64,000 nt of DNA from NCBI RefSeq assembly GCF_007859935.1, contig NZ_SJPO01000004.1:62001-126000 (forward strand), in the 5' to 3' direction. The stretch comes from Posidoniimonas polymericola (GTDB taxonomy: Bacteria > Planctomycetota > Planctomycetia > Pirellulales > Lacipirellulaceae). Each line of letters begins with the position of its first letter. Position 1 is the stretch's first letter. Under the pieces are notes generated by a model. That model searched no databases. It was not told the DNA's origin and saw only the letters and a program-made list of their open reading frames with translations. Shown piece by piece: positions 13,752 to 25,450 of this stretch. The position numbers were made by a program, and so were the translations under genes.

Positions 13752-15572
13752 TTACTCCTGTGAGCCTTCCTCTGGGGGAGACTCTTGCTGAACTTCCGTT
13801 TGCCCTGCAGCGGGCTGCTCGACGCCGGGGATGCCGTACTTCTCCGCCATCCAGGCGGAGAGGCGGGCCGACTGGTCGTGCGAGAGCGCTGAGTCGTAAA
13901 CCAGTACTTCGGCGATGTCGCCGGTGAAACCAAAACCGTCGCGGTCGAAGTGCGACCCGATATAGCGTGGCGACGTGGTGGAGTTGACCACCGGCGCGTC
14001 GGCCGACTCGCTAATCAACTCGCCGTCCAGGTAGAGCGTGGCGGTCGACTGATCGCTGTTGTACGAGTAGACCGCCACGTGGGGACCATCGCTGACGGGC
14101 GTGGCGCTGCGGAGCAGGCCGGTGTCCTCGGGGATCTTGGTGTTCCGCAACCACGCCAGGTGGACGCGGGCCTCGAGTCGGGCGTCGCCGTTGATCTGCA
14201 CAACGGTGTGGGGCGGGCCGTTGAGGTTCAAGAGCTGGACGCCCAAGTGCTTGTAGTCCCGGCGACGGCGGACCAGCCGGCTGGCGGCCTCGCGGTTGAC
14301 GCGGAACACCACCGCCGACGACTGGTTGGCGCCGAGCGGCATCGGCTCGGTAACCAAGGACTGGTAGCCGTTGAACCGCAGCGCCGGGCGGCCGTTCATC
14401 GCGTCGGCCACGTACCGCGGCCGCTTGTTTCCCAGCACCTGCCAGGCGTCCTCGGAGGTCGGGTTGCCGGCGCACTGGCTGTCGCCCCACGCAGAAACGC
14501 GTCCCCGCTGGTCCTGCTGGACCCGGCTCTCGGCGTTGAACCAGACGCCCACCTTGCCGACATCGGGCGGCTGATTGAGCCCCTCGCTCTCGCCGTCGAT
14601 GATGGGCCGCAGGAACCGCTCGGGCCGGGCCTTGATCATCGAGTCGACGCCGTTCATGCCGGAACGCGTCCAGCCGGCCCCGCCCTCAAGGGTTACCGGC
14701 TCGGTGCGGCGGTTGGCGAGGCCGCTGGGCTCCGCGATCACCTTCCCCTTGAAGACGTGGGTCTCGACGGCGCCGTCGTCGCCGACCACCATTCCGAACT
14801 CGGTGCCGAGGTCGATGAACTGCCCGGCGTGGGTCTCAATCTTGAAGCCGCGCCCACTCGGTGGGACGTTCGCGCTGAGCGTGCCGTCCAGCAGCTGGGC
14901 GCCTAGCGGCGAGGTCGGGATGAGCGTCGCGGGTCCGTTGAGCGCCACTACTGCTCCAGAGGTAAACTCGAGCACCAGCAGGCCGCGCGACAGGTTGATC
15001 CGCTGGCCGGCCGTGATCTCTGCCGAGGTCGCCACGCTCCAGCGGTCGTCTTCCCAGTCGCAATCGATCTTCTTGGTAATCCGCGCCACCACCGGGTTCA
15101 GCTCAACTCCGGGAACGCCAACGCTGCCCTGAGCGATCGCCTCCTTGGGATCCCCTCCCCCGTCCAGCAACGCTCCCCCCCAGTTCATCACCCCCACTGC
15201 CAGCAAGACCACCGCGGCGAGCGACAACACCAGCGTCCAGAGCTGCGACCGACGCAGGTCCGATGGATCGGCGGCCGCCGAGCGGCCCCGGCTAGCCTCG
15301 GCAGGGGCGGCAGGGGCGGCCTCGACGCCCGTGTCCGGGTCACCCCCACCGAAGGTGGCGTCTACCGCCCGCATCGCCTTAAGCTCTTCGAGCGAGAACG
15401 GCCGCACCGGCGCGACCGACTCTGCCATCTGGAGGTGGATCCCAAGCAGCCTCAGGTAGGCGCGGGCGGCCTCGGGCTTGTCGCGCAGCAGCTCGCTGAG
15501 CTGCTTGGCCTGCTCCTGGTCGAGACGACTCTCGATCAGGTCGTTCAGTAGTTGTATGGTCTTGCGGTCCAT
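13752..15572 (-). CDS. FecR/LamG membrane protein, putative anti-sigma or surface sensor
   Basis: Protein of 606 aa. Residues 1-65 form a helical cytoplasmic segment (LLNDLIESRLDQEQAKQL) similar to anti-sigma N-termini. A single membrane helix lies at about 112-130 (LWTLVLSLAAVVLLAVGVMN). A FecR-type domain follows at about 160-300 with GRGFKIETHAGQFIDLGTEF, and a LamG/concanavalin-like domain at about 345-585 (GVWFNAESRV, SAVVFRVNREAASR, TLYLDGELI, FTGDIAEVLVYDSALS). The family is typical of Planctomycetes and is always found with an ECF-like sigma factor, here 65 bp upstream. The LamG part probably binds extracellular glycan and the N-terminus the sigma factor; that mechanism is inferred. 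Confidence 0.9.
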   Translation of the reverse strand: MDRKTIQLLNDLIESRLDQEQAKQLSELLRDKPEAARAYLRLLGIHLQMAESVAPVRPFSLEELKAMRAVDATFGGGDPDTGVEAAPAAPAEASRGRSAAADPSDLRRSQLWTLVLSLAAVVLLAVGVMNWGGALLDGGGDPKEAIAQGSVGVPGVELNPVVARITKKIDCDWEDDRWSVATSAEITAGQRINLSRGLLVLEFTSGAVVALNGPATLIPTSPLGAQLLDGTLSANVPPSGRGFKIETHAGQFIDLGTEFGMVVGDDGAVETHVFKGKVIAEPSGLANRRTEPVTLEGGAGWTRSGMNGVDSMIKARPERFLRPIIDGESEGLNQPPDVGKVGVWFNAESRVQQDQRGRVSAWGDSQCAGNPTSEDAWQVLGNKRPRYVADAMNGRPALRFNGYQSLVTEPMPLGANQSSAVVFRVNREAASRLVRRRRDYKHLGVQLLNLNGPPHTVVQINGDARLEARVHLAWLRNTKIPEDTGLLRSATPVSDGPHVAVYSYNSDQSTATLYLDGELISESADAPVVNSTTSPRYIGSHFDRDGFGFTGDIAEVLVYDSALSHDQSARLSAWMAEKYGIPGVEQPAAGQTEVQQESPPEEGSQE

Positions 15573-15637
15573 TGGTCCGACGATCTCATCACGGGATCTT
15601 GAAACTCTCGCCTGTCGCTATCTAACGCTATCTGCGG

Positions 15638-16216
15638 CTACGCGTCCACACTGGACCAGGCTCCACCGACGCCATCGGCGCCCCGCTCAAGGGCAGACGC
15701 CTGCCGCTGCACGCAGTCGGCCAGGGCCTTGCGGATGCGGCAGAGCGACTGGGAAATACTGTTGGCCGGCCGGCCCAGCTTTTCGGCCAGTCCGGTGACG
15801 CTCGCGCCCGGGGCGTAGCGGCCGACAATCAACTCACGGTCCCCAGGCCTTAGCCGATCCAGGCACCCGCTGAGAACGTTCAGGTTGGTGTCGGCCGTTT
15901 CCTGCGACTCGCTGAACCGCCCCGCCAACTCCTCGAGCAGCTGCGGGTCGAGCGTCGCGATCCGCCGCGACGATGTCCGGCGGTGCCGCAGCACGGTCAG
16001 CCGCGCGACCTCTCTCGCCCAGGCGAAGAAGTTGGTCCCCGACTCGTAGTGATCGAACTTCCGCCACAGCACGATGTTGGTCTCCTGCAGCAGGTCGGCC
16101 GCCGTGTTCGGGTCAAACACGAGGGCGATCAGGTAGGCGTGCAGCGCCCGCTGCGACTGCGCAAACAGTTGCAGGAATTCTTCATCACGGGACTCGCTGC
16201 CGTCTGGTTCAGACAT
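15638..16216 (-). CDS. ECF-like RNA polymerase sigma factor, planctomycete type
   Basis: Protein of 192 aa. Region 2 is visible as AYLIALVFDPNTAADLLQETN and FDHYESGTNFFAWAREVAR, region 4 as DRELIVGRYAPGASVTGLAEKLGRP followed by the recognition helix NSISQSLCRIRKALADC. It belongs to the Rhodopirellula/Verrucomicrobium group of sigma-70-like factors that are paired with FecR/LamG proteins. It heads a three-gene unit with the FecR/LamG protein and a sulfatase, so it probably drives expression of these and perhaps of the divergent sulfatase arm starting at 16660. Start ATG at 16216 gives the usual family length. Confidence 0.93.
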   Translation of the reverse strand: MSEPDGSESRDEEFLQLFAQSQRALHAYLIALVFDPNTAADLLQETNIVLWRKFDHYESGTNFFAWAREVARLTVLRHRRTSSRRIATLDPQLLEELAGRFSESQETADTNLNVLSGCLDRLRPGDRELIVGRYAPGASVTGLAEKLGRPANSISQSLCRIRKALADCVQRQASALERGADGVGGAWSSVDA

Positions 16217-16659: not shown

Positions 16660-18735
16660 ATGAAGCTCGTCGGAGTCGCCTCCACCAACGCGGCTCGCCG
16701 CAGAGTGGCGATGATCGCCGCGGCGTTGCTAGCAACGTCGCTCGGCAATCAGGCCGCGGCGCAAGCCACGCGTCCCAACATCCTGGTCATCATGGCCGAC
16801 GACCTCGGTCGGACCGACATCGGTCCCTACGGCAGCGAGATGAACACGCCGGCCCTCGACTCGATGGCCGCGGCGGGGGTGCGTTTCCAGAATTTCTACG
16901 TCACGCCCCGCTGTTCGAACACCCGCGCCCAATTGCTGACGGGGCAGCAGTCGCACGCGGTCGGCCTGCCTAACCTGGCGGGGGACGGCACGCGGCTCCC
17001 CAAGAACAACGTGTTCATCCCCGAGGTGCTGCAGGACAGCGGCTACCGCACCTACATGTCCGGCAAGTGGCACCTGGGGAACACGACCAACTTTGGCTCG
17101 CTGCCAGACGGGCACGACCGTGACCCCCGCGTCCGCGGCTTCGACCATTACTACGGCTTCACGGAGAACCATAGCCAGGACAACTTCCAGGGGAATTACC
17201 GGCTGCTCTCTGACGAGGTCCCCGAGCGGAGCTACACCACCACCTCGGGCAACGGCCAACCCGGCACGTTCTACCAGACCGACGCCATCGGCGACTATGC
17301 GCTCGACTTCCTCGAGCACAATCGGCAGAAGAACGCCGAGGGCGACAACCAGCCGTTCTTCGAGTACGTCGCCTTCGGGGCCCCGCACTTTCCGCTGCAG
17401 GCCCGCGACGAGTGGGTCGACCCGCTGGTGAGCCGCTACGAGCAGGGCTGGGACGCCCTCCGCGAGAGCCGCCTGCAGGGCCTCAAGGACGAGGGCCTGA
17501 TCGATCCGAACATCGAGCTAACTCCGCGGGGCGACGTCGCCCAGACCGGCCACGGCGAGGCGCTGCACCAGATCCGCGCGTGGGACTCCCTCGACTCGAC
17601 CCGGCAGGCCGATCTGACGCGTCGGATGGCGATCTACGCGGCGATGGTCGAACGCGTCGACTACAACGTCGGCCGTATCCTCGACGACCTCGAGGCCAAT
17701 GGCGAGCTCGACAACACCATTGTCATGTTCCTCTCCGACAACGGCGCCGACGCCGAGTGGCACGAGTTTGGCTTCAACGCCGGCGAGGTCCCCCGCACCG
17801 GCGCCGACCTCGACAGCATGGGCACGACCACCAACGCGGTGGACGAGAAGATCTTCTACGGCTCCGGCTGGGCGAACGCGGGGCAGTCCCCCTACCGCAA
17901 CTACAAGCACTACACCCACGAGGGGGGCATCCTCTCGCCGGCGATCGTGCAGTGGAACAACGGGCTCGACCCGTCGCTCGTCGGCCAGGTCGGGACCCAG
18001 GTCGGCGACGTCCGCGACCTGATGCCGACGCTGCTGGCGGTCGCCGGAGCCCAGTACCCCTCCGAGTGGACCGACCTGTCGGGCCAGACTTACGGCACCC
18101 AGCCCATCTTTGGTGAGAGCCTGGCCGAATACCTGGCGACCGGCGTCGAGACCGGCGACCGCGAGCTCGGCTGGCAGCACGAGGGCAACCGCGCCTTCCG
18201 CCTGGGCGACTGGAAGCTGGTCTCAAGTAATTTTGGCAGCACTCAACCCGGCGGCGCCGGCGTCGACGAATGGGAGCTGTACGACCTGTCGACCGACCCG
18301 ACCGAGAGCGTCGACCTGGCCGACAACGCCGCGTACGCGGACCAGTTCAGCCTGATGCTGGCCGGCTACGAGCGGTGGGCATACCAGAACAAGGTGTCGT
18401 CCGCCTTGCCCTGGTCGGCCGCCGACTTCAACAAGGACGGCGTGCTCGACGCCGCGGACCTCGCCGCGTTCAAGACCGGCTGGCTGCACCGCGAGGCGCT
18501 AGGCTCGAACTCGACCTTCGCCCTGGGCGACGTCGACCTCGACGGCGACACCGACATCGACGACTTCGTGCTCGTCTACCAGGCGTTCGGCCAGTTGGGC
18601 CAGGCGCAGGCGGTCGAGTCGTTCGCCAATTCCCTGTCGATCCCGGAACCGGGCGCCGCCTCGGTGGCCGCGATGCTGCTGGCGCGGCTCGGTTTCCACC
18701 GCCGCCAACGCCCCTCGACCGACAGCAAGAAATAG
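16660..18735 (+). CDS. Secreted sulfatase with dockerin-like module and PEP-CTERM tail
   Basis: Protein of 691 aa from the ATG at 16660 (AGAGAAGAAG upstream). Signal peptide about 1-35 ending AAAQA. Sulfatase domain with RPNILVIMADDLGRTDIG (Asp47/Asp48), PRCSNTRAQLLTGQQSH, YMSGKWHLGN, PHFPLQARDEW and TIVMFLSDNGADAEW. The formylglycine motif is Cys85-Ser86-Asn87-Thr88-Arg89, with Asn where Pro, Ser or Ala is expected. Residues about 585-655 hold a dockerin-like pair (ADFNKDGVLDAADLAAF, GDVDLDGDTDIDDFVLVY), then IPEPGAASVAAMLLARLGFHRR, the PEP-CTERM tail. It opens a plus-strand series of surface-sorted proteins. Sulfatases with PEP-CTERM tails are expected to stay at or be released from the cell surface. 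Confidence 0.93.
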   Translation: MKLVGVASTNAARRRVAMIAAALLATSLGNQAAAQATRPNILVIMADDLGRTDIGPYGSEMNTPALDSMAAAGVRFQNFYVTPRCSNTRAQLLTGQQSHAVGLPNLAGDGTRLPKNNVFIPEVLQDSGYRTYMSGKWHLGNTTNFGSLPDGHDRDPRVRGFDHYYGFTENHSQDNFQGNYRLLSDEVPERSYTTTSGNGQPGTFYQTDAIGDYALDFLEHNRQKNAEGDNQPFFEYVAFGAPHFPLQARDEWVDPLVSRYEQGWDALRESRLQGLKDEGLIDPNIELTPRGDVAQTGHGEALHQIRAWDSLDSTRQADLTRRMAIYAAMVERVDYNVGRILDDLEANGELDNTIVMFLSDNGADAEWHEFGFNAGEVPRTGADLDSMGTTTNAVDEKIFYGSGWANAGQSPYRNYKHYTHEGGILSPAIVQWNNGLDPSLVGQVGTQVGDVRDLMPTLLAVAGAQYPSEWTDLSGQTYGTQPIFGESLAEYLATGVETGDRELGWQHEGNRAFRLGDWKLVSSNFGSTQPGGAGVDEWELYDLSTDPTESVDLADNAAYADQFSLMLAGYERWAYQNKVSSALPWSAADFNKDGVLDAADLAAFKTGWLHREALGSNSTFALGDVDLDGDTDIDDFVLVYQAFGQLGQAQAVESFANSLSIPEPGAASVAAMLLARLGFHRRQRPSTDSKK

Positions 18736-18799
18736 CCCAATCAACCTCATCTCCTCTTTGATCCACCGATTCTTTTCTGCAACTTGGGAGCGACAGCTA

Positions 18800-19708
18800 A
18801 TGCGTAACCACTGGATCCATCGGCTCGCCATCGGCGCGGCGGCGCTCGCCGCCATGCCGGCAACCGTCAACGCCGGCGTGCTGTTTAGCGACAGCTTCAA
18901 CCGCGCCGACAGCGCCAACATCGACGAATCGCTGACCGGCATCGTCGACAACACCGGCTCGGCCCTGTCGGCCGACGGCGTCTACTCGCAGCCTTGGGTC
19001 GACCCGGCCAACGAGACCACCGGCTACGACGGCGACCCCGGCAACGGCGGCGGAGCCCAGATCGGCGACAACCAGCTGCAGCTGGCGGTCGGCCCCGGCA
19101 CCTCCAACGCCTACGTCAACCACAACTTCATCAACCCAGAGATCCTCGCTGCCGGTGGGTTCCGCGTCTCGCTGGACGTGAACGACTTCAGCCAGAACAG
19201 CGAGGGACAAGGCGGGGCCTTTGCGGTCGGCATGACCGCCGCCGAAGCGGCCGCCACGAACGACGCCTTCAACGGCAACCCCTCAAACGCCAAGATGACC
19301 AACGCCTTCCCCACCGAGTTCACCGACACGGTCTCCGACTTCTGGGTCGGTCTCCGCGGCGACGGGACCAAGGAGCTCGCCTGGGGGAACGGCCCGGTGC
19401 CGGTCAGCGACCCCAGCTTCCAGGTTGTCGACCTCGACTCGAAAACCGGGACGATCTCGGCCGACTTCAGCTTCAGCAGCTTCGCGGCCGGCTCGGACGT
19501 GGCGGTCTCGATCTATTTCAACGGCGTGCTGCAGGGAACCGGCGCGTTCCAGTGGAGCGACTCTGACGCCAACTACATCGGCATCGACACCCGCGACGCG
19601 CAGATCGTGTCGCTCGACAACTTCAGCGTGAGCACGCTCCCCGAGCCCGGCTCGTTGGCCCTGCTCGCCATGATCAGCGGCTGCGGCCTGGTGGGCCGCC
19701 GCCTGTAA
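18800..19708 (+). CDS. Secreted PEP-CTERM protein, single-module member of a local family
   Basis: Protein of 302 aa from the ATG at 18800, with GGGAG upstream. Signal peptide about 1-24 (LAIGAAALAAMPATVNAG). The body is a beta-sandwich-like module beginning VLFSDSFNRADSANIDESLTG and containing NAYVNHNF, SDFWVGLRG, GTGAFQWSDSDANYIGIDTR and VSLDNFSV. The same module occurs twice in the following gene, so the two genes are a local expansion. There is no dockerin module; the PEP-CTERM tail LPEPGSLALLAMISGCGLVGRRL follows the module directly. Fold resembles LamG/DUF1080-type carbohydrate-binding sandwiches; function otherwise unknown. Confidence 0.88.
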   Translation: MRNHWIHRLAIGAAALAAMPATVNAGVLFSDSFNRADSANIDESLTGIVDNTGSALSADGVYSQPWVDPANETTGYDGDPGNGGGAQIGDNQLQLAVGPGTSNAYVNHNFINPEILAAGGFRVSLDVNDFSQNSEGQGGAFAVGMTAAEAAATNDAFNGNPSNAKMTNAFPTEFTDTVSDFWVGLRGDGTKELAWGNGPVPVSDPSFQVVDLDSKTGTISADFSFSSFAAGSDVAVSIYFNGVLQGTGAFQWSDSDANYIGIDTRDAQIVSLDNFSVSTLPEPGSLALLAMISGCGLVGRRL

Positions 19709-19771: not shown

Positions 19772-22700
19772 ATGCAATTATTTGGATCTCGCAGAAATCG
19801 TCTGCAGGCGGCGGTTGTGGCCGCACTGGCTCTCATATTCATCGGGGGGCAGGCCTCCGCGGTCGTGCTATTCTCCGACACCTTTGACCGGAGCGACAAC
19901 CGCAACATCGACGCCGAGCTGACCGGCATCACCAACAACACCGGGACCACACTCGGCGTGGACGGCGTTTACAGCCAGCCGTTCCTCGACCCGGCCAACG
20001 ACCCCGGCCCGCAGGACGGCGACGCCACCAACGGCGGCGGAGCCCAGATCCTCAACAGCAACCTGCAGCTCGCGGTCGGCGCGGGCACATCCAACGCGTA
20101 CGTCAACCACAACTTCACCAACAGCGACATCCTCACCGCCGGCGCGTTCAGCGTCTCGCTCGACGTGCTCGACGGCTACGGTGGAACGTCGGCCGGCCAG
20201 GGCGCGGCCTTCGGGATTGGCATGACCCAGGCCGACGCCGACACCGCGGGCGACGCCAACGGCGCCGGCAGCGGCGGCCCTACGTTCTCCGACGCCTTCA
20301 ACCCCGACAGCACGCCCGTGGGCGACTTCTGGGTCGGCATCCGCGGCGACTCGACCATCGCCTGGGGCGACGGCGACTCCATACAGTCGGCCCCGGTCGG
20401 CAATAAGTTTGGCACGGTCTCGGCCAACTTCGGCGTGTCCGACTTCAGTGCCGGATCGGTTGTGACCTACGAGGTGTTTTTCGACGGAGTCAATGTCGGC
20501 GTCGGCTCGTTCCAGTGGAGCAACGACAACGCCAACTTCATTGGCCTCGACGGCCGCACGGGGAACGCCCTCAGCCTCGACAACTTCACGGTCGAGACAT
20601 CGACCCCGCCCGTGGTCCCGTCGCTAACGATCGACCGCGCCACCGGCAACATCACACTGACCAACGAAACCGCCCAGCCCCTGTCGATGATCGTCTACTC
20701 GATTACCTCGCAGAACGGCGGCTTCGACCGCGACGCTTGGGCAACGATCGAGTCTCAGGGCATCGACGCCGACGACGACTGGATCACCCTCACCGACACC
20801 ACCGGCCCTGTGCTGACAGACATCTCCGAGGGCACGGTCGGCTCGTACGCGCTGGGCGCGTCCGGCTCGGCCAACGACTCCATCAACTTCGGGGATGCCT
20901 GGATCCCCGGCCCGGCAGAGGACGTCCAGCTCGAGCTGCGTGACGTCAATGGCAACGACGTACCCGTCGTGGTTCAGTACGTCGGCGACCCGATTCAGGC
21001 CGGCGATTACAACGGCAACGGCACGATCGACGCCGGCGACTGGCCCACCATCCGCGACAACCTGGTCTCGGACGTCTCGTCCCTGACGCCGTTCGAGGCC
21101 TACCTGAGCGGCGACCTGACCGGCGACGGCGTGGTCGACCGCGCGGACTTCCGGCAGTTCAAGGGGCTGTGGGAAGCGGCCAACCCGGGGATGAGTTTCG
21201 CCGCGATGGTGGCGGCCCCCGAGCCGACCTCGATCGCCCTGCTGGCCCTGGGTCTGCTGGCGGCCCCGTGTGCGGCGCGTCGCCGCGGGGCGGCGGTTGT
21301 CGCGTTGGTGCTTGGCCTCTCGCTGAGCGCCACCAGCGCCCAGGCTGTGACGCTGTTCGCCGACACGTTCGACCGCGCCGACTCCCGCAACATCGACGCC
21401 GAGCTGACCGGCGTCGCCAACAACACCGGCACGACGCTCGGCGTAGGCGGCGTCTACTCGCAGCCGTTCGTCGACCCGGCCAACGACCCCGGCCCCCAGG
21501 ACGGCGACGCCGTCAACGGCGGCGGCACTCAGATCCTCGGCGGCCAGCTTCAGCTGGCGGTCGGCGCGGGAACGTCTAACGCGTATGTCAACCACAACTT
21601 CGTCAACAACCAGATCCTGGCCGACGGCGGCTTCAGGGTCACACTGGGCGTGCTCGGCTACGGCGGCGGGACCCGTGGCCAGGGCGGCGGATTCGCGATC
21701 GGAATGTCGCAGGCCCGGGCCGACTCGGCCGGCGACGCGGCCGGCGGCGACGACGTGATGATGACCGCCGCGTTTAACGACCTCGGCTTCATCGGCAATA
21801 CGCTGCCGGCGCCCGAGAACGTAGTTTCCGACTTCTGGGTCGCGATCCGCGGCAACAACTCGCTCGCCTGGGGCGGCGGCAACGGCCCGATTTACGGCGC
21901 CGCCGAGGGCGCCCTGGCCGCCAAGACCGGCGTTGTGTCGGCGACGTTCGCTCCGACCGGTTTCAACGCCGGCGACGCGGTCGCCTACGAGGTCTTCGTC
22001 GACGACGTGTCGATGGGCTACGGCGCCTTCCAGTGGTCCGAGGACCAGAGCAACTACATTGGCATCGACGGCCGTGACGGCGGCGCCGTGATCTTTGACA
22101 ACTTCGCGGTCGAGACCGTCACCGACGCCGCCATCAACCCGCTGCGGCTGCAGGTCGACACCGCGACCGGCAGCGTCTCGATCGCGGGCGGCGACGTCGC
22201 CAACGAGCTCGACTACTACGAGATCCGCAGCGCCACGGGCGGCCTGGTCGCTGGAGCGTTCACCGGTCTGGCCGGCGCCGCCGGCTTCCCCGCCGGCGAC
22301 GGCTCGGGCAACGGCTGGGAGCAGGGCGGCGTGCAGACCAGCGGACTGCTGAATGAGAGCTACCTGCAGGCATCGTCGACCGTGTCGGCCGGCGCGGCGG
22401 CGACCTCGCTCGGCGCTGTGTACGACACCACGGCGGACAGCCGCGACCTGCAGTTCTTCTACGACCTGCCGGATGGCTCGACGGTGCCGGGATTTGTCGA
22501 GTACCTCAGCCTGACCTCACTGCCCGACTTCAACGGCGACGGCACAGTCGACGCCGCCGACTACACCGTCTGGCGTGACAATGAGGGCACGATTGGCGGC
22601 GCCGCGTTCGCCGACGGCGACGCTAATGGCGACGGGAACGTCACTGCAGCCGACTACTCGATCTGGAAGGCCAACTACGGCGCCACCGTGCTCGTTGCGC

Positions 22701-22798
22701 CGAGCGGAACCGTGTCGGCCCCCGAGCCCTCGGCAGTGCTGCTCACCTTCGGACTGCTGCCGCTGCTGCGACGCCGTCGCAACGGTCTGTCGAAGTAA
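19772..22798 (+). CDS. Fused tandem PEP-CTERM proteins (two complete paralogues in one frame)
   Basis: Protein of 1008 aa. First half (1-505): signal peptide, module starting VLFSDTFDRSDNRNIDAELTG, a second beta domain, dockerin-like repeats (GDYNGNGTIDAGDWPTIRDN, GDLTGDGVVDRADFRQF) and a full PEP-CTERM tail with PEP at 483-485 and RRR at 503-505. Second half (506-1008) starts at once with a hydrophobic stretch AAVVALVLGLSLSATSAQA that looks like a signal peptide without its Met, then the module again (VTLFADTFDRADSRNIDAELTG), dockerin repeats ([33 protein letters not shown]) and a second tail, APEPSAVLLTFGLLPLLRRRR. It looks like two neighbouring genes joined by loss of a stop and a start. 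Junction near position 21287. Confidence 0.9.
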   Translation: MQLFGSRRNRLQAAVVAALALIFIGGQASAVVLFSDTFDRSDNRNIDAELTGITNNTGTTLGVDGVYSQPFLDPANDPGPQDGDATNGGGAQILNSNLQLAVGAGTSNAYVNHNFTNSDILTAGAFSVSLDVLDGYGGTSAGQGAAFGIGMTQADADTAGDANGAGSGGPTFSDAFNPDSTPVGDFWVGIRGDSTIAWGDGDSIQSAPVGNKFGTVSANFGVSDFSAGSVVTYEVFFDGVNVGVGSFQWSNDNANFIGLDGRTGNALSLDNFTVETSTPPVVPSLTIDRATGNITLTNETAQPLSMIVYSITSQNGGFDRDAWATIESQGIDADDDWITLTDTTGPVLTDISEGTVGSYALGASGSANDSINFGDAWIPGPAEDVQLELRDVNGNDVPVVVQYVGDPIQAGDYNGNGTIDAGDWPTIRDNLVSDVSSLTPFEAYLSGDLTGDGVVDRADFRQFKGLWEAANPGMSFAAMVAAPEPTSIALLALGLLAAPCAARRRGAAVVALVLGLSLSATSAQAVTLFADTFDRADSRNIDAELTGVANNTGTTLGVGGVYSQPFVDPANDPGPQDGDAVNGGGTQILGGQLQLAVGAGTSNAYVNHNFVNNQILADGGFRVTLGVLGYGGGTRGQGGGFAIGMSQARADSAGDAAGGDDVMMTAAFNDLGFIGNTLPAPENVVSDFWVAIRGNNSLAWGGGNGPIYGAAEGALAAKTGVVSATFAPTGFNAGDAVAYEVFVDDVSMGYGAFQWSEDQSNYIGIDGRDGGAVIFDNFAVETVTDAAINPLRLQVDTATGSVSIAGGDVANELDYYEIRSATGGLVAGAFTGLAGAAGFPAGDGSGNGWEQGGVQTSGLLNESYLQASSTVSAGAAATSLGAVYDTTADSRDLQFFYDLPDGSTVPGFVEYLSLTSLPDFNGDGTVDAADYTVWRDNEGTIGGAAFADGDANGDGNVTAADYSIWKANYGATVLVAPSGTVSAPEPSAVLLTFGLLPLLRRRRNGLSK

Positions 22799-22909
22799 CC
22801 CGAAATCGCAGCGTGGGCGGTCGTCGCACCTTGGCGGCCGCCCCGCCTCAGACAAGCGAAACACACTATGAATCTTCTCACCAAGCCCAACACGATGGAG
22901 TTGGAAGCC

Positions 22910-24223
22910 ATGAATCAGGACCCTCGCTCGATGAGCCTCGTCAAGCTTGCCGCGTTCGGCGCCCTCGCCTGCATGGCGATCGGGCTGTCGGCAGAGCGGG
23001 CCGGAGCCGCCTACACGCTCGACCGTTGGTACCAGATGGGCGACGACATGCTGTTCGCCGGCACCGGCAGCGCCGAGTCGGCCTCAAACGGCGCCGAGGT
23101 CGGATCGAACGCCTCGATAGCGGGCGTGACCTACGACAGCGCCGCAACTGACAACGATAGCTTCCAAGCTCTGACGGCCATCGGAGCCGACGGCGCGCCG
23201 ACCTACGTCCAGTACGGCGTCGGCGGCAACCCGGCCGCCCCGGTCGCCGGAGCCAGCTCGATGAACAGCTTCGGCATCCGCCTGGACGGTGTCGACGACT
23301 ATCTCGAGGGCGTCGCCCTCAACGACCCGTCGGTCACGGCCCCCGGTTCGAACGTCAGCTACAGCACCCAGGACCGCGGCTTCCAGCTGTGGGCTTACCC
23401 GTTCAGCCCCGGGGAGATCCCCCAGTGGCTCGTCGACGACGGCGACGAGCACGGCGTGTCGCTCGCCACCGGCGGCGCTTGGTCGGCCAAGCTCCGTGAC
23501 GACAACGTCGACTCCGGCGTCATGGCCACGACTAACGGGTGGGACCACTTAATGGTAGTCCACGACGAGGCCGGCCTTGGCACGGGCGCCGCCTACGTGA
23601 ACGGCATCGCTACCTCGACGCAGGGGCTCGGCTACGACTCCGGCTCGGTCGCCAAGCTGCTAGTCGGCGCCAACTCCGAGACTGATGACGCGGACCTGCA
23701 GATTCCCCCCGCGGACCTGACCAACCCCGGCTTCTACGCCGGCATCATCGACGAGATCGAGATGTTCGTCATCGACGACGGTTCCGCCTACGGCCAGTTC
23801 GACTACCTGACCGACAACGGCTACTTCACGGACGTCTTCCTTCCGTCGCAGTCGGGCTACGGCTTCACCCTGAATGCATCCACGGGGCACAACAGCCAGC
23901 AGTGGATCGACGGCGACATCGACTTCGACGGCGACTTCGACGCCGACGACGTGCAGGTCTTCATCGATGGCTGGCTCTCCCGACGGCCCGACCTGCCGGG
24001 CGCCGGCCTGCAGGTCGGCGACTACCAGACGCTGGCCCTGGGCGACCTCGACCTCGACGGCGACACCGACGTCGACGACTGGGTCGTGCTGCGGCTGCTG
24101 AACCCGCCGCTCGGATCGCTGCCGTCGCTAGCGCAGCTGAACGCCGCACCGGAACCGACCGCCTGCGTGCTGCTCGCAGCGGGTGCTCTCGCCTGCTGCG
24201 GCCCGCGTCGGCGCAATCATTAA
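22910..24223 (+). CDS. Secreted LamG-like protein with dockerin-like module and PEP-CTERM
   Basis: Protein of 437 aa if the ATG at 22910 is used; it has a purine-rich GGAAGCC before it and gives a compact signal peptide (VKLAAFGALACMAIGLSAERAGA). An in-frame ATG at 22868 would add 14 residues. The middle is a LamG/concanavalin-type fold: SFGIRLDGVDDYLEG, DRGFQLWAYPF, WDHLMVVHDEAGLGTGAAYVNG, KLLVGANSE and FYAGIIDEIEMFV. Dockerin-like repeats follow (GDIDFDGDFDADDVQVFIDG, GDLDLDGDTDVDDWVVL), then APEPTACVLLAAGALACCGPRRR. Probably binds an extracellular glycan. It is the last PEP-CTERM gene of the sulfatase arm. Confidence 0.87.
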   Translation: MNQDPRSMSLVKLAAFGALACMAIGLSAERAGAAYTLDRWYQMGDDMLFAGTGSAESASNGAEVGSNASIAGVTYDSAATDNDSFQALTAIGADGAPTYVQYGVGGNPAAPVAGASSMNSFGIRLDGVDDYLEGVALNDPSVTAPGSNVSYSTQDRGFQLWAYPFSPGEIPQWLVDDGDEHGVSLATGGAWSAKLRDDNVDSGVMATTNGWDHLMVVHDEAGLGTGAAYVNGIATSTQGLGYDSGSVAKLLVGANSETDDADLQIPPADLTNPGFYAGIIDEIEMFVIDDGSAYGQFDYLTDNGYFTDVFLPSQSGYGFTLNASTGHNSQQWIDGDIDFDGDFDADDVQVFIDGWLSRRPDLPGAGLQVGDYQTLALGDLDLDGDTDVDDWVVLRLLNPPLGSLPSLAQLNAAPEPTACVLLAAGALACCGPRRRNH

Positions 24224-24370: not shown

Positions 24371-25450
24371 ATGAAACGGACCACCTCACCTAGCCGCAAC
24401 CGGGCGTTCACGCTTGTGGAGTTGCTCGTTGTCATTGCGATCATCGGCGTGCTTATCGCCCTCTTGCTGCCCGCCGTGCAGGCAGCCCGCGAGGCGGCCC
24501 GGCGTAGCTCGTGCACCAATAAGCTTAAGCAGCAGGCACTTGCGATCCTGAACTTCGAGTCGTCCCACGGCGAGCTGCCCGCCGGCATCAACGTGTTCGA
24601 GAACGCCAACGGCCAGCCGGCGGATGTCCCCGAGGACAACACCTTCAAGGCGGTCTGGGCGACCTGGTGCGTCGAAGCCCTGCCGTACATGGAGAACCAG
24701 GCGCTCAGCGACGCGTTCCAGGACGGACTGCGGCTCGACCAGCAGCCCAATCGCTCGCTGCTCAACAAGGAGCTGCCCGAGTTCCTCTGCCCCTCCGACG
24801 GCCTGCCGGGCGGTTACGGGCAGCAGCCGTACGACTTCGGCCGCTCGTCGTATGTCGGCAGTTCGGGCGTCGCGAGCGGGCAGTGGCCGTGGGGACGCGT
24901 GAAGAGCGTCATGAACACCACTACCGGCAAGCCGCAGGGCTTCGCGACCAACCCCGCGGGCAAGCGGCTCCGTGGCGCGTTCACCACCGTCTTCGAGCCG
25001 ACTGGCATCAAGCGGATTAAGCTGCGGATGGTTTCCGACGGCACGAGCGACACCCTCGCCATCGGCGAGTACCACACCGAAGAGATCTTCGACCCTGCCA
25101 ACCAATCGAACTGGAACTACGCGTCGTGGTCGAGCTGGCGGGCGTACATGTCAATGGGCGCGGTCTACAGCCCCAACTACTCGAGCAGCAACATGCTCGG
25201 CGCCATCGGCACGCCGGACTTCGCCAAGTGCAAGTCGGAGCTCGGCCTAGTCGACCAGCCGTGCCGCTTTGCCTATGCGTCCAAGCACTCGGCCGGCGTG
25301 ATGCAGTTTGCCTACCTCGACGGGCACGTCGATTCGCTGACGCCCGACACCGACATCTACGTCCTCGAGGCCAAGGCGACCATCTCCGGCGGCGAGGTCG
25401 ACGCGGCCCAGGCGGTCGGCTCCGGCGGCGGCGGGCCGTTCGGAAGCTAG
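24371..25450 (+). CDS. DUF1559 pilin-like protein
   Basis: Protein of 359 aa. The leader [19 protein letters not shown] has Ala, not Gly, before the Phe of the prepilin motif, followed by [26 protein letters not shown]. Family landmarks: NFESSHGELPAGINVF, EALPYMENQALSDAF, EFLCPSDGLPGG, and near the end KHSAGVMQFAYLDGHVDSLTPDTD (H-X-DG motif). AAGGATTTTCGCA precedes the ATG. It follows the LamG/PEP-CTERM gene by 147 bp on the same strand and closes the plus-strand sulfatase arm, with strong hairpins just after its stop. Probably an envelope protein made together with the surface-sorted proteins. Confidence 0.95.
   Translation: MKRTTSPSRNRAFTLVELLVVIAIIGVLIALLLPAVQAAREAARRSSCTNKLKQQALAILNFESSHGELPAGINVFENANGQPADVPEDNTFKAVWATWCVEALPYMENQALSDAFQDGLRLDQQPNRSLLNKELPEFLCPSDGLPGGYGQQPYDFGRSSYVGSSGVASGQWPWGRVKSVMNTTTGKPQGFATNPAGKRLRGAFTTVFEPTGIKRIKLRMVSDGTSDTLAIGEYHTEEIFDPANQSNWNYASWSSWRAYMSMGAVYSPNYSSSNMLGAIGTPDFAKCKSELGLVDQPCRFAYASKHSAGVMQFAYLDGHVDSLTPDTDIYVLEAKATISGGEVDAAQAVGSGGGGPFGS

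What the first reader, a model, noticed from the sequence alone, without database searches (positions are those of the whole stretch)
19772..22798. Head-to-tail fusion of two complete PEP-CTERM proteins with an internal sorting tail and buried signal peptide
The first half ends with a full PEP-CTERM tail and RRR at residue 505; the second half starts at 506 with a signal-peptide-like stretch lacking Met and carries its own tail. If the internal tail is processed, the fusion would yield two surface proteins from one chain. Such an arrangement is not one I know of.
Basis: partly seen in the sequence, partly recalled or inferred. Interest (0 to 1): 0.62.

Follow-up and report, generated by a model that had tools for sequence, protein, structure and literature searches.

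The report
Bacterial surface proteins made as polyproteins
In one family of aquatic bacteria, many surface proteins that should each end in their own sorting tail are encoded two or three to a chain, with a sorting tail and a fresh secretion signal at every joint, so that cell enzymes could cut one long chain into several surface proteins.

Summary
The 1008-aa frame at 19772-22798 is open and carries an internal PEP-CTERM tail (residues 483-505), a Met-less signal-peptide-like stretch ending A-Q-A (506-525), then a second lectin-like half with its own terminal tail. It is no artefact: all 6 genomes found with this gene (39 searched) share the in-frame junction, and between them the hydrophobic stretches have largely lost sequence identity while hydrophobicity and AxA persist. 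Nor is it unique. A model that stops at the arginines found 81 internal tails in the stretches fetched, 80 followed by a signal-peptide-like segment (random windows: 47 of 3950). Thirteen lie in this genome; 19 precursors have two internal junctions. One gene family shows both tight junctions and junctions whose linker still holds a Met. Best reading: secreted polyproteins. The internal tail stops transfer with its arginines in the cytoplasm; the next segment restarts export and is cut by signal peptidase I; an exosortase (three encoded here) could process the internal tail like a terminal one. Architecture, recurrence and conservation are shown; topology and cleavage are inferred. An uncut membrane hairpin is the main rival.

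The parts
19772..22798 (+). Fused precursor, 1008 aa: two complete PEP-CTERM proteins head to tail
   Evidence: in-frame junction in 6 of 6 genomes found with the gene
19772..19861 (+). N-terminal signal peptide (residues 1-30, ending A-S-A)
   Evidence: read from sequence; aligned with relatives
19862..20596 (+). Half A: ConA-like (L-type-lectin-like) beta-sandwich domain, residues 31-275
   Evidence: AlphaFold2 model; VIA Z 15.8 for a phage baseplate domain and 13 to 15 for many lectin domains; related to half B and to 18872-19636
20624..21211 (+). Half A: beta module and dockerin type I repeats (DW type), residues 285-480
   Evidence: Dockerin_1 with 2 stretches in the protein; weak match of residues 410-461 to PDB dockerin DocCel5, E 0.012
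21218..21286 (+). Internal PEP-CTERM tail (residues 483-505: PEP, hydrophobic segment, RRR)
   Evidence: PF07589 at 481-505, below cut-off; P483 E484 P485 and R503 invariant in 6 orthologs
21287..21346 (+). Internal Met-less signal peptide (residues 506-525), predicted signal peptidase I cut after A525
   Evidence: A523 and A525 invariant in 6 orthologs; SP-like by rule at 80 of 81 internal junctions, this one among them; no start codon before residue 512
21347..22096 (+). Half B: second lectin-like domain, from residue 526
   Evidence: groups with half B of two Botrimarina-genus genomes, support 99/98
22130..22696 (+). Half B: beta module and dockerin type I repeats
   Evidence: Dockerin_1 best stretch 919-966
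22721..22795 (+). Terminal PEP-CTERM tail (residues 984-1008), then TAA
   Evidence: read from sequence
18797..19708 (+). Upstream unfused paralogue: lectin-like domain plus PEP-CTERM tail, no dockerin match
   Evidence: a separate third copy in all 6 genomes
16660..18735 (+). Sulfatase with dockerin and PEP-CTERM-like tail (tail by eye), same strand, 61 nt upstream of the paralogue
   Evidence: PF00884 E 1.9e-57, Dockerin_1 24 bits vs 22.9; sulfatase-like frame upstream in the five relatives, by eye
22868..24223 (+). LamG-like protein with PEP-CTERM-like tail (tail by eye), 69 nt downstream of the fusion
   Evidence: PF13385 at 27.8 bits, cut-off 27.6

Best explanation
This is a secreted bacterial polyprotein. 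One ribosome makes two surface proteins in one chain. The N-terminal signal peptide starts export of half A. The internal PEP-CTERM hydrophobic segment stops transfer with its arginines in the cytoplasm, and the abutting Met-less signal peptide forms the second leg of a hairpin, restarts export and is cut after A-Q-A by signal peptidase I, releasing half B. Exosortase then acts on half A at the internal PEP and on half B at the terminal PEP, giving equal amounts of two proteins with a carbohydrate-binding type of fold, from an operon-like cluster with a sulfatase. Such precursors probably arose repeatedly when tandem PEP-CTERM genes lost the stop between them, because a tail's arginines and a signal peptide's basic n-region can serve the same topology. 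Shown: architecture, recurrence, conservation of the junction. Inferred: topology, both cuts, stoichiometry, origin by stop loss, lectin function.
For: In-frame junction in 6 of 6 genomes found with the gene. Mean pairwise identity among these: internal hydrophobic segments 0.29 and 0.20, AxA block 0.67, domains 0.56 to 0.60, the pattern expected of a working signal peptide. A model truncated at the arginines found 81 internal tails in 62 proteins, 80 SP-like; random windows passed in 47 of 3950. Strict AxA after the core at 62 of 81 junctions (32.1 expected by shuffling), like N-terminal signal peptides of the same proteins, 36 of 56 (17.3 expected). Internal tails are no weaker than terminal ones: PEP after 80 of 90 internal and 109 of 115 terminal dockerin hits, median hydrophobicity 2.52 vs 2.36, median 3 basic residues each. 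19 of 62 precursors have two internal junctions. Within one gene family 3 of 8 fused members are tight and 5 of 8 keep a linker with a Met before the second signal peptide. Three exosortase matches in the genome.
Against: No cleavage or proteomic data. The SP rule is home-made; no SignalP was available. The internal tail is below the Pfam and NCBIfam cut-offs. Haft 2006 suspected that the very few tails far from the C-terminus may be non-functional (passage). After the signal-peptidase cut the internal tail would still carry about 20 extra residues, and I know of no exosortase shown to accept that. 26 of 81 junctions hold an ATG, 14 of these with an SD-like stretch, so some downstream units might also be started separately. 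Most tails remain ordinary: the same model found 139 terminal tails beside the 81 internal ones (46 and 13 in the own genome's fetched stretches). The 60 family loci were picked with a model that included the signal-peptide columns, which favours fusions. In the one family tested, the two unfused A genes (L132, L173) are not followed by a relative of half B, so the same pair was not caught both split and fused.
Confidence: 0.72

Rival explanations
1. Uncut hairpin: the internal tail plus next segment is a two-helix membrane anchor that keeps both halves joined on the outer face; the terminal tail alone is sorted.
For: The hairpin topology alone would need only hydrophobicity and basic residues, which are also kept.
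Against: AxA is kept at the end of the second segment about as often as in N-terminal signal peptides (62 of 81, 32.1 expected; 36 of 56, 17.3 expected), and A523 and A525 are invariant in 6 orthologs while the helix sequence has diverged. An anchor has no need of PEP or AxA.
Confidence: 0.15
2. Neutral gene fusions: stop codons between tandem genes were lost by drift, and the joined protein is cut or degraded anyhow without importance.
For: Junctions with long linkers and a Met look like fairly recent stop losses (L122, L150, L156, L158, L174).
Against: By parsimony the window fusion is older than the split of its genus from Botrimarina (half B groups with half B, 99/98; independent fusions not strictly excluded), and the junction is open in 6 of 6 genomes. 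Against neutrality of the segment itself: shuffled junction DNA is open and SP-like in only 0.1 to 1.8% of trials. A benefit of being fused, rather than tolerated, is not shown.
Confidence: 0.1
3. Two proteins are started separately: ribosomes re-initiate inside the junction, so the downstream unit has an ordinary signal peptide and the fusion is a by-product.
For: 26 of 81 junctions hold an ATG, 14 of them with an SD-like stretch; 36 more hold only GTG or TTG, 7 with an SD-like stretch. The window has a TTG and a GTG inside the core.
Against: The window junction has no ATG, and no start codon before residue 512; 19 of 81 junctions have none in the stretch examined. 4 of 6 orthologs, window included, have no Met between the arginines and AxA. 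With no stop, the upstream ribosome must read on.
Confidence: 0.03
4. Assembly or sequencing error that removed a stop and a start near 21287.
For: None found; raw reads not available.
Against: Same in-frame junction in five other genomes of three other genera and many other junctions of the same build.
Confidence: 0

Closest known systems
PEP-CTERM / exosortase system (Haft 2006, PMC1569441, passages seen)
   Same: PEP motif, hydrophobic segment, arginine cluster, N-terminal signal peptide, exosortases in the genome, many targets per genome
   Different: The tail is internal and is followed by a new signal peptide and a second full protein. The paper reports fewer than ten residues after the domain in 87% of proteins and suspects that the very few with much longer tails may be non-functional
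Cytochrome b/c1 precursor FbcH of Bradyrhizobium (recalled; no paper seen)
   Same: A bacterial fused precursor in which a signal peptide after a membrane segment is cut by signal peptidase to give two proteins (recalled)
   Different: One respiratory gene, no sorting tail, no exosortase; here many surface proteins, up to three units
Viral glycoprotein polyproteins with an internal signal peptide after a membrane anchor (recalled)
   Same: Anchor, short cytoplasmic turn, internal signal peptide cut by the host signal peptidase
   Different: Viral and eukaryotic; no C-terminal sorting enzyme. Likeness of principle, not kinship
LPXTG/sortase and GlyGly-CTERM/rhombosortase tails (PMC3237569, passages seen)
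   Same: Tripartite tail: motif, hydrophobic helix, basic cluster
   Different: Described as C-terminal; the words internal, fusion and tandem do not occur in the main text of PMC3237569

Membership tests
PEP-CTERM / exosortase target | PEP motif, hydrophobic segment, basic cluster | tested here: met
   Read at 483-505 and 984-1008; PEP invariant in 6 orthologs at both tails
PEP-CTERM / exosortase target | Score above the curated model cut-off | tested here: not met
   PF07589 17.8 bits vs 20.7; TIGR02595 13 vs 16
PEP-CTERM / exosortase target | Tail at the extreme C-terminus | tested here: not met
   Internal tail followed by 503 residues; the second tail (984-1008) is terminal
PEP-CTERM / exosortase target | Exosortase in the same genome | tested here: met
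   3 matches to PF09721 over cut-off in own genome; 12 of 12 genomes searched, own included, have one
PEP-CTERM / exosortase target | Cleavage at the tail by exosortase | not testable with these tools
   Needs proteomics or a mutant
Secreted polyprotein with internal signal peptide | Single open frame with two or more complete units | tested here: met
Secreted polyprotein with internal signal peptide | Internal segment with basic residues, hydrophobic core and AxA-type site | tested here: met
   80 of 81 internal junctions by a home-made rule; 47 of 3950 random windows
Secreted polyprotein with internal signal peptide | Cleavage into mature units | not testable with these tools
   No N-terminal or mass-spectrometry data
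Dockerin type I | Pfam PF00404 above cut-off | tested here: met
   37.9 bits vs cut-off 22.9, 2 stretches
L-type lectin-like fold | ConA-like beta-sandwich | tested here: met
   Model mean pLDDT 69.6; 81 to 93 in 17 of 18 ten-residue blocks of model residues 91-270, lower before that. VIA Z 13 to 15 against many lectin domains, best row 15.8 a phage baseplate domain. Sugar binding not tested

The most novel reading that the evidence does not exclude
A family of bacteria makes a share of its surface proteins as serial polyproteins of two or three units, joined by a reusable stop-and-restart hairpin (sorting tail, arginines, signal peptide). Signal peptidase I and exosortase together act as the polyprotein-processing machinery, so exosortase can work on tails that are not C-terminal.
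Probability: 0.62. Interest if true: 0.8.

Novelty: new variant of a known kind. Interest (0 to 1): 0.72.

Why it matters
Bacterial polyproteins are thought to be rare (recalled), and PEP-CTERM tails are described as C-terminal. If these joints are cut, a bacterial family uses a virus-like precursor strategy for many surface proteins, with fixed stoichiometry and order. It also gives a direct test of what an exosortase needs: whether a tail must be terminal. For annotation it means that one gene may be two or three mature proteins, and that long frames with internal tails should not be dismissed as artefacts.

Tried and rejected
Artefact: rejected. Weak or decayed internal tails: rejected by comparing internal and terminal tails after the same dockerin model. 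Ten of the 90 internal dockerin hits had no PEP within 45 residues; on reading, four lie in fused proteins ahead of more of half B (L020, L124, L125, L164) and six in other long proteins; all ten were left in the denominator.

Unbiasedness: the first count (78 of 79) used a model containing the signal-peptide columns, so it was repeated with a model cut at the arginines (80 of 81). The one miss, L178 at 969, still looks like a weak signal peptide by eye. The 60 family loci were the top rows apart from own-genome rows and the five other orthologs, hence enriched for fusions. Own-genome loci were picked and from frames mostly over 900 aa, so the own count of 13 is a lower bound. One search counts 157 own matches; 12 of the rows it lists (the list is cut) reach model position 140 or more without a stop.

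Tree: halves A, B and the separate copy S are not each one clade (6 label changes against a minimum of 2); G013 half A groups with S copies, as if converted. The age claim rests only on the supported groups own B with Botrimarina-genus B and own S with Botrimarina-genus S.

Series from split to fused: I first took L132 and L173 (unfused A genes) as the split form of the L016 pair. A check showed that no open frame held in those loci matches half B, so the downstream PEP-CTERM genes there are different; this claim was dropped. In all 8 fused members checked, the first half matches half A best and the second half half B best among the two placements (L174 only narrowly). G004 holds both L132 and L174, so orthology is not settled; no tree was made.

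Next-gene test for unfused A-type tails: 26 of 36 have a start codon and SP-like open frame of at least 100 aa within 300 nt; GTG and TTG were allowed, so some are chance.

Literature, all in the held open-access library: PEP-CTERM with polyprotein 0 papers, bacterial polyprotein with signal peptidase 0, PEP-CTERM with dockerin 0, polyprotein with internal signal peptide and bacteria 1 unrelated virus review, PEP-CTERM with Planctomycetes and exosortase 5, PEP-CTERM with signal peptide and Planctomycetota 1, exosortase with internal 35, of which 25 listed, Lacipirellulaceae or PEP-CTERM since 2018 117, of which 20 listed. The fbcH search listed nothing on that protein among 8 rows. Passages only were seen of PMC1569441, PMC3237569, PMC12188702 and PMC12078418; other papers only as listings. 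So absence from print is only as wide as these searches. A GenBank-wide architecture search could not be run.

Full report
What is there. The frame at 19772-22798 is an ATG-started ORF of 1008 codons with no stop. It reads: signal peptide (1-30), lectin-like domain A (31-275), beta module with dockerin repeats (285-480), PEP-CTERM tail (483-505), Met-less signal-peptide-like stretch (506-525), lectin-like domain B (526 on), second module with dockerin, terminal PEP-CTERM tail (984-1008). Dockerin_1 passes its cut-off with two stretches; PEP-CTERM aligns at 481-505 but at 17.8 bits against 20.7, and TIGR02595 is also short of its cut-off. The lectin-like domains and the upstream gene 18797-19708 are related: 63% and 55% identity to copy A. 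A model of half A (mean pLDDT 69.6) matches ConA-like domains over residues 1-249: best row a phage baseplate domain at Z 15.8, many L-type lectins at 13 to 15.

Is it an artefact? A model of the lectin-like domain was searched in 39 genomes (own included); 6 have it, each with three or four copies. In 5 of the 6 the two fused copies share one frame of 1012, 1012, 1064, 1026 and 1075 aa. In the sixth (G006) one in-frame stop lies in half A, but the junction is open within a 694-aa frame. All six junctions show PEP, hydrophobic segment, basic residues, second hydrophobic segment, AxA. Three of these genomes are, by matching contig lengths, Aeoliella straminimaris, Botrimarina colliarenosi and the MAG Planctomycetales HKST-UBA22; Aeoliella and Botrimarina belong to Lacipirellulaceae (title of PMC7717034 in a listing), so that is very probably the family here (inference).

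Selection on the junction. In the alignment of the six, P483 E484 P485, R503, A523 and A525 are invariant. Mean pairwise identity is 0.29 in the first and 0.20 in the second hydrophobic segment, 0.67 in the AxA block and 0.56 to 0.60 in the domains; the N-terminal signal peptide has 0.35 and the terminal tail segment 0.37. Shuffling each junction's DNA leaves an open, signal-peptide-like result in 0.1 to 1.8% of 5000 trials. Half B of the window groups with half B of two genomes of the Botrimarina genus (99/98) and the separate copy with theirs (100/99), so by parsimony the fusion predates that genus split; elsewhere in the tree the copies mix.

It is a class, not a single gene. Searching the own genome with the whole protein showed that the stretch around the joint recurs in other long frames. 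A cassette model from 15 junctions (A2) matched 42 of 43 genomes of the family at E 1e-12 or better, 3 of 294 genomes of a phylum-wide draw at 1e-20 (own plus two), and 35 of 146 genomes of the order at 1e-15, 23 of them of this family (the 12 others were not inspected). A match to this model is not yet a fusion. Of the two outside hits of the phylum draw, G134 has a tight internal junction in a 1241-aa frame; in G298 the match itself is the terminal tail of a 930-aa frame that, by eye, also holds an internal tail with a linker and a second hydrophobic segment. In one family member, G013, 33 of 141 matches reach model position 140 or more without a stop; in the own genome 12 of the rows listed from 157 matches do.

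Controls. A model cut at the arginines, blind to what follows, found 81 internal tails in 62 proteins of the fetched stretches: 13 in 11 proteins of the own genome, 68 in 51 proteins elsewhere; 80 of 81 are followed by a segment that meets a home-made signal-peptide rule. The same model found 139 terminal tails, 46 of them in the own genome. Random windows of the same kind of proteins met the rule in 47 of 3950 cases. Nineteen proteins have two internal tails and 43 have one. Strict AxA after the core occurs in 62 of 81 (32.1 expected by shuffling the same 16 residues) and in 36 of 56 N-terminal signal peptides (17.3 expected). Internal tails are not decayed: PEP within 45 residues after 80 of 90 internal and 109 of 115 terminal dockerin hits, with similar hydrophobicity and basic residues.

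How such genes may arise. In one gene family (L016 and relatives) eight fused members have both halves. Three junctions are tight (L016, L121, L133) and five have a linker with a Met just before the second signal peptide (L122, L150, L156, L158, L174), as if the stop had been lost and the spacer was still being trimmed. Two unfused relatives of half A (L132, L173) are followed by other PEP-CTERM genes, not by half B, so the same pair was not caught split. Of 81 junctions 26 hold an ATG, 14 of these with an SD-like stretch; 36 hold only GTG or TTG, 7 of them with an SD-like stretch; 19, the window's among them, hold no start codon from the basic cluster to six residues into the core. The turn can work because a tail's arginines and a signal peptide's basic start both belong in the cytoplasm (established topology rules, recalled).

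Mechanism and rivals. Most likely the hairpin stops and restarts export, signal peptidase I cuts after AxA, and exosortase acts at PEP; three exosortase matches are present. The first cut is better supported than the second, since AxA is what the sequences keep; an exosortase acting on a tail that still carries the cut signal peptide is a new demand on that enzyme. An uncut hairpin, neutral fusion and separate starts are weighed in the rivals section.

What is known. Haft 2006 reports that 87% of PEP-CTERM proteins have fewer than ten residues behind the domain and that the very few with much longer tails may be non-functional (passage). A 2025 study of a cyanobacterial exosortase did not detect peptides of the tail in either strain (passage), so cleavage is poorly mapped even for ordinary targets. 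I found no paper joining PEP-CTERM with polyprotein. An internal signal peptide in a bacterial fused precursor is known to me from FbcH (recalled). I therefore rate this a new variant of a known kind.

Setting. The fusion lies in a run of same-strand genes: sulfatase (to 18735), paralogue (18797-19708), fusion (19772-22798), LamG-like protein (22868-24223), with gaps of 61, 63 and 69 nt. Sulfatase-like and lectin-like genes are also together in the five relatives, by eye, so a role in holding or using sulfated polysaccharide is plausible but inferred.

Noticed in passing
   Followed up: partly
L136, L140, L149, L152, L159, L172: In several precursors with two internal junctions the last unit keeps an ATG with an SD-like stretch inside the open frame, so it may be made both fused and alone.
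   Followed up: partly
L022 (own genome C13:92500-101500), frame of 1610 aa: Own-genome precursor with two internal tails, the first with a long linker and a Met: an apparent mid-stage of fusion.
   Followed up: partly
window 13752-16216 (-): By eye a sigma-factor-like gene (15638-16216) next to a long protein that looks FecR-like with a LamG-like part (13752-15572), running opposite to the sulfatase cluster; possibly its regulator.
   Followed up: no
window 24371-25450 (+): Prepilin-like protein with an [33 protein letters not shown] start downstream of the cluster; similar frames lie near other PEP-CTERM loci (L020, L027).
   Followed up: no
own genome: 157 matches to the dockerin-plus-PEP-CTERM cassette model in 6.26 Mb: a very large set of candidate sorted proteins.
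   Followed up: no
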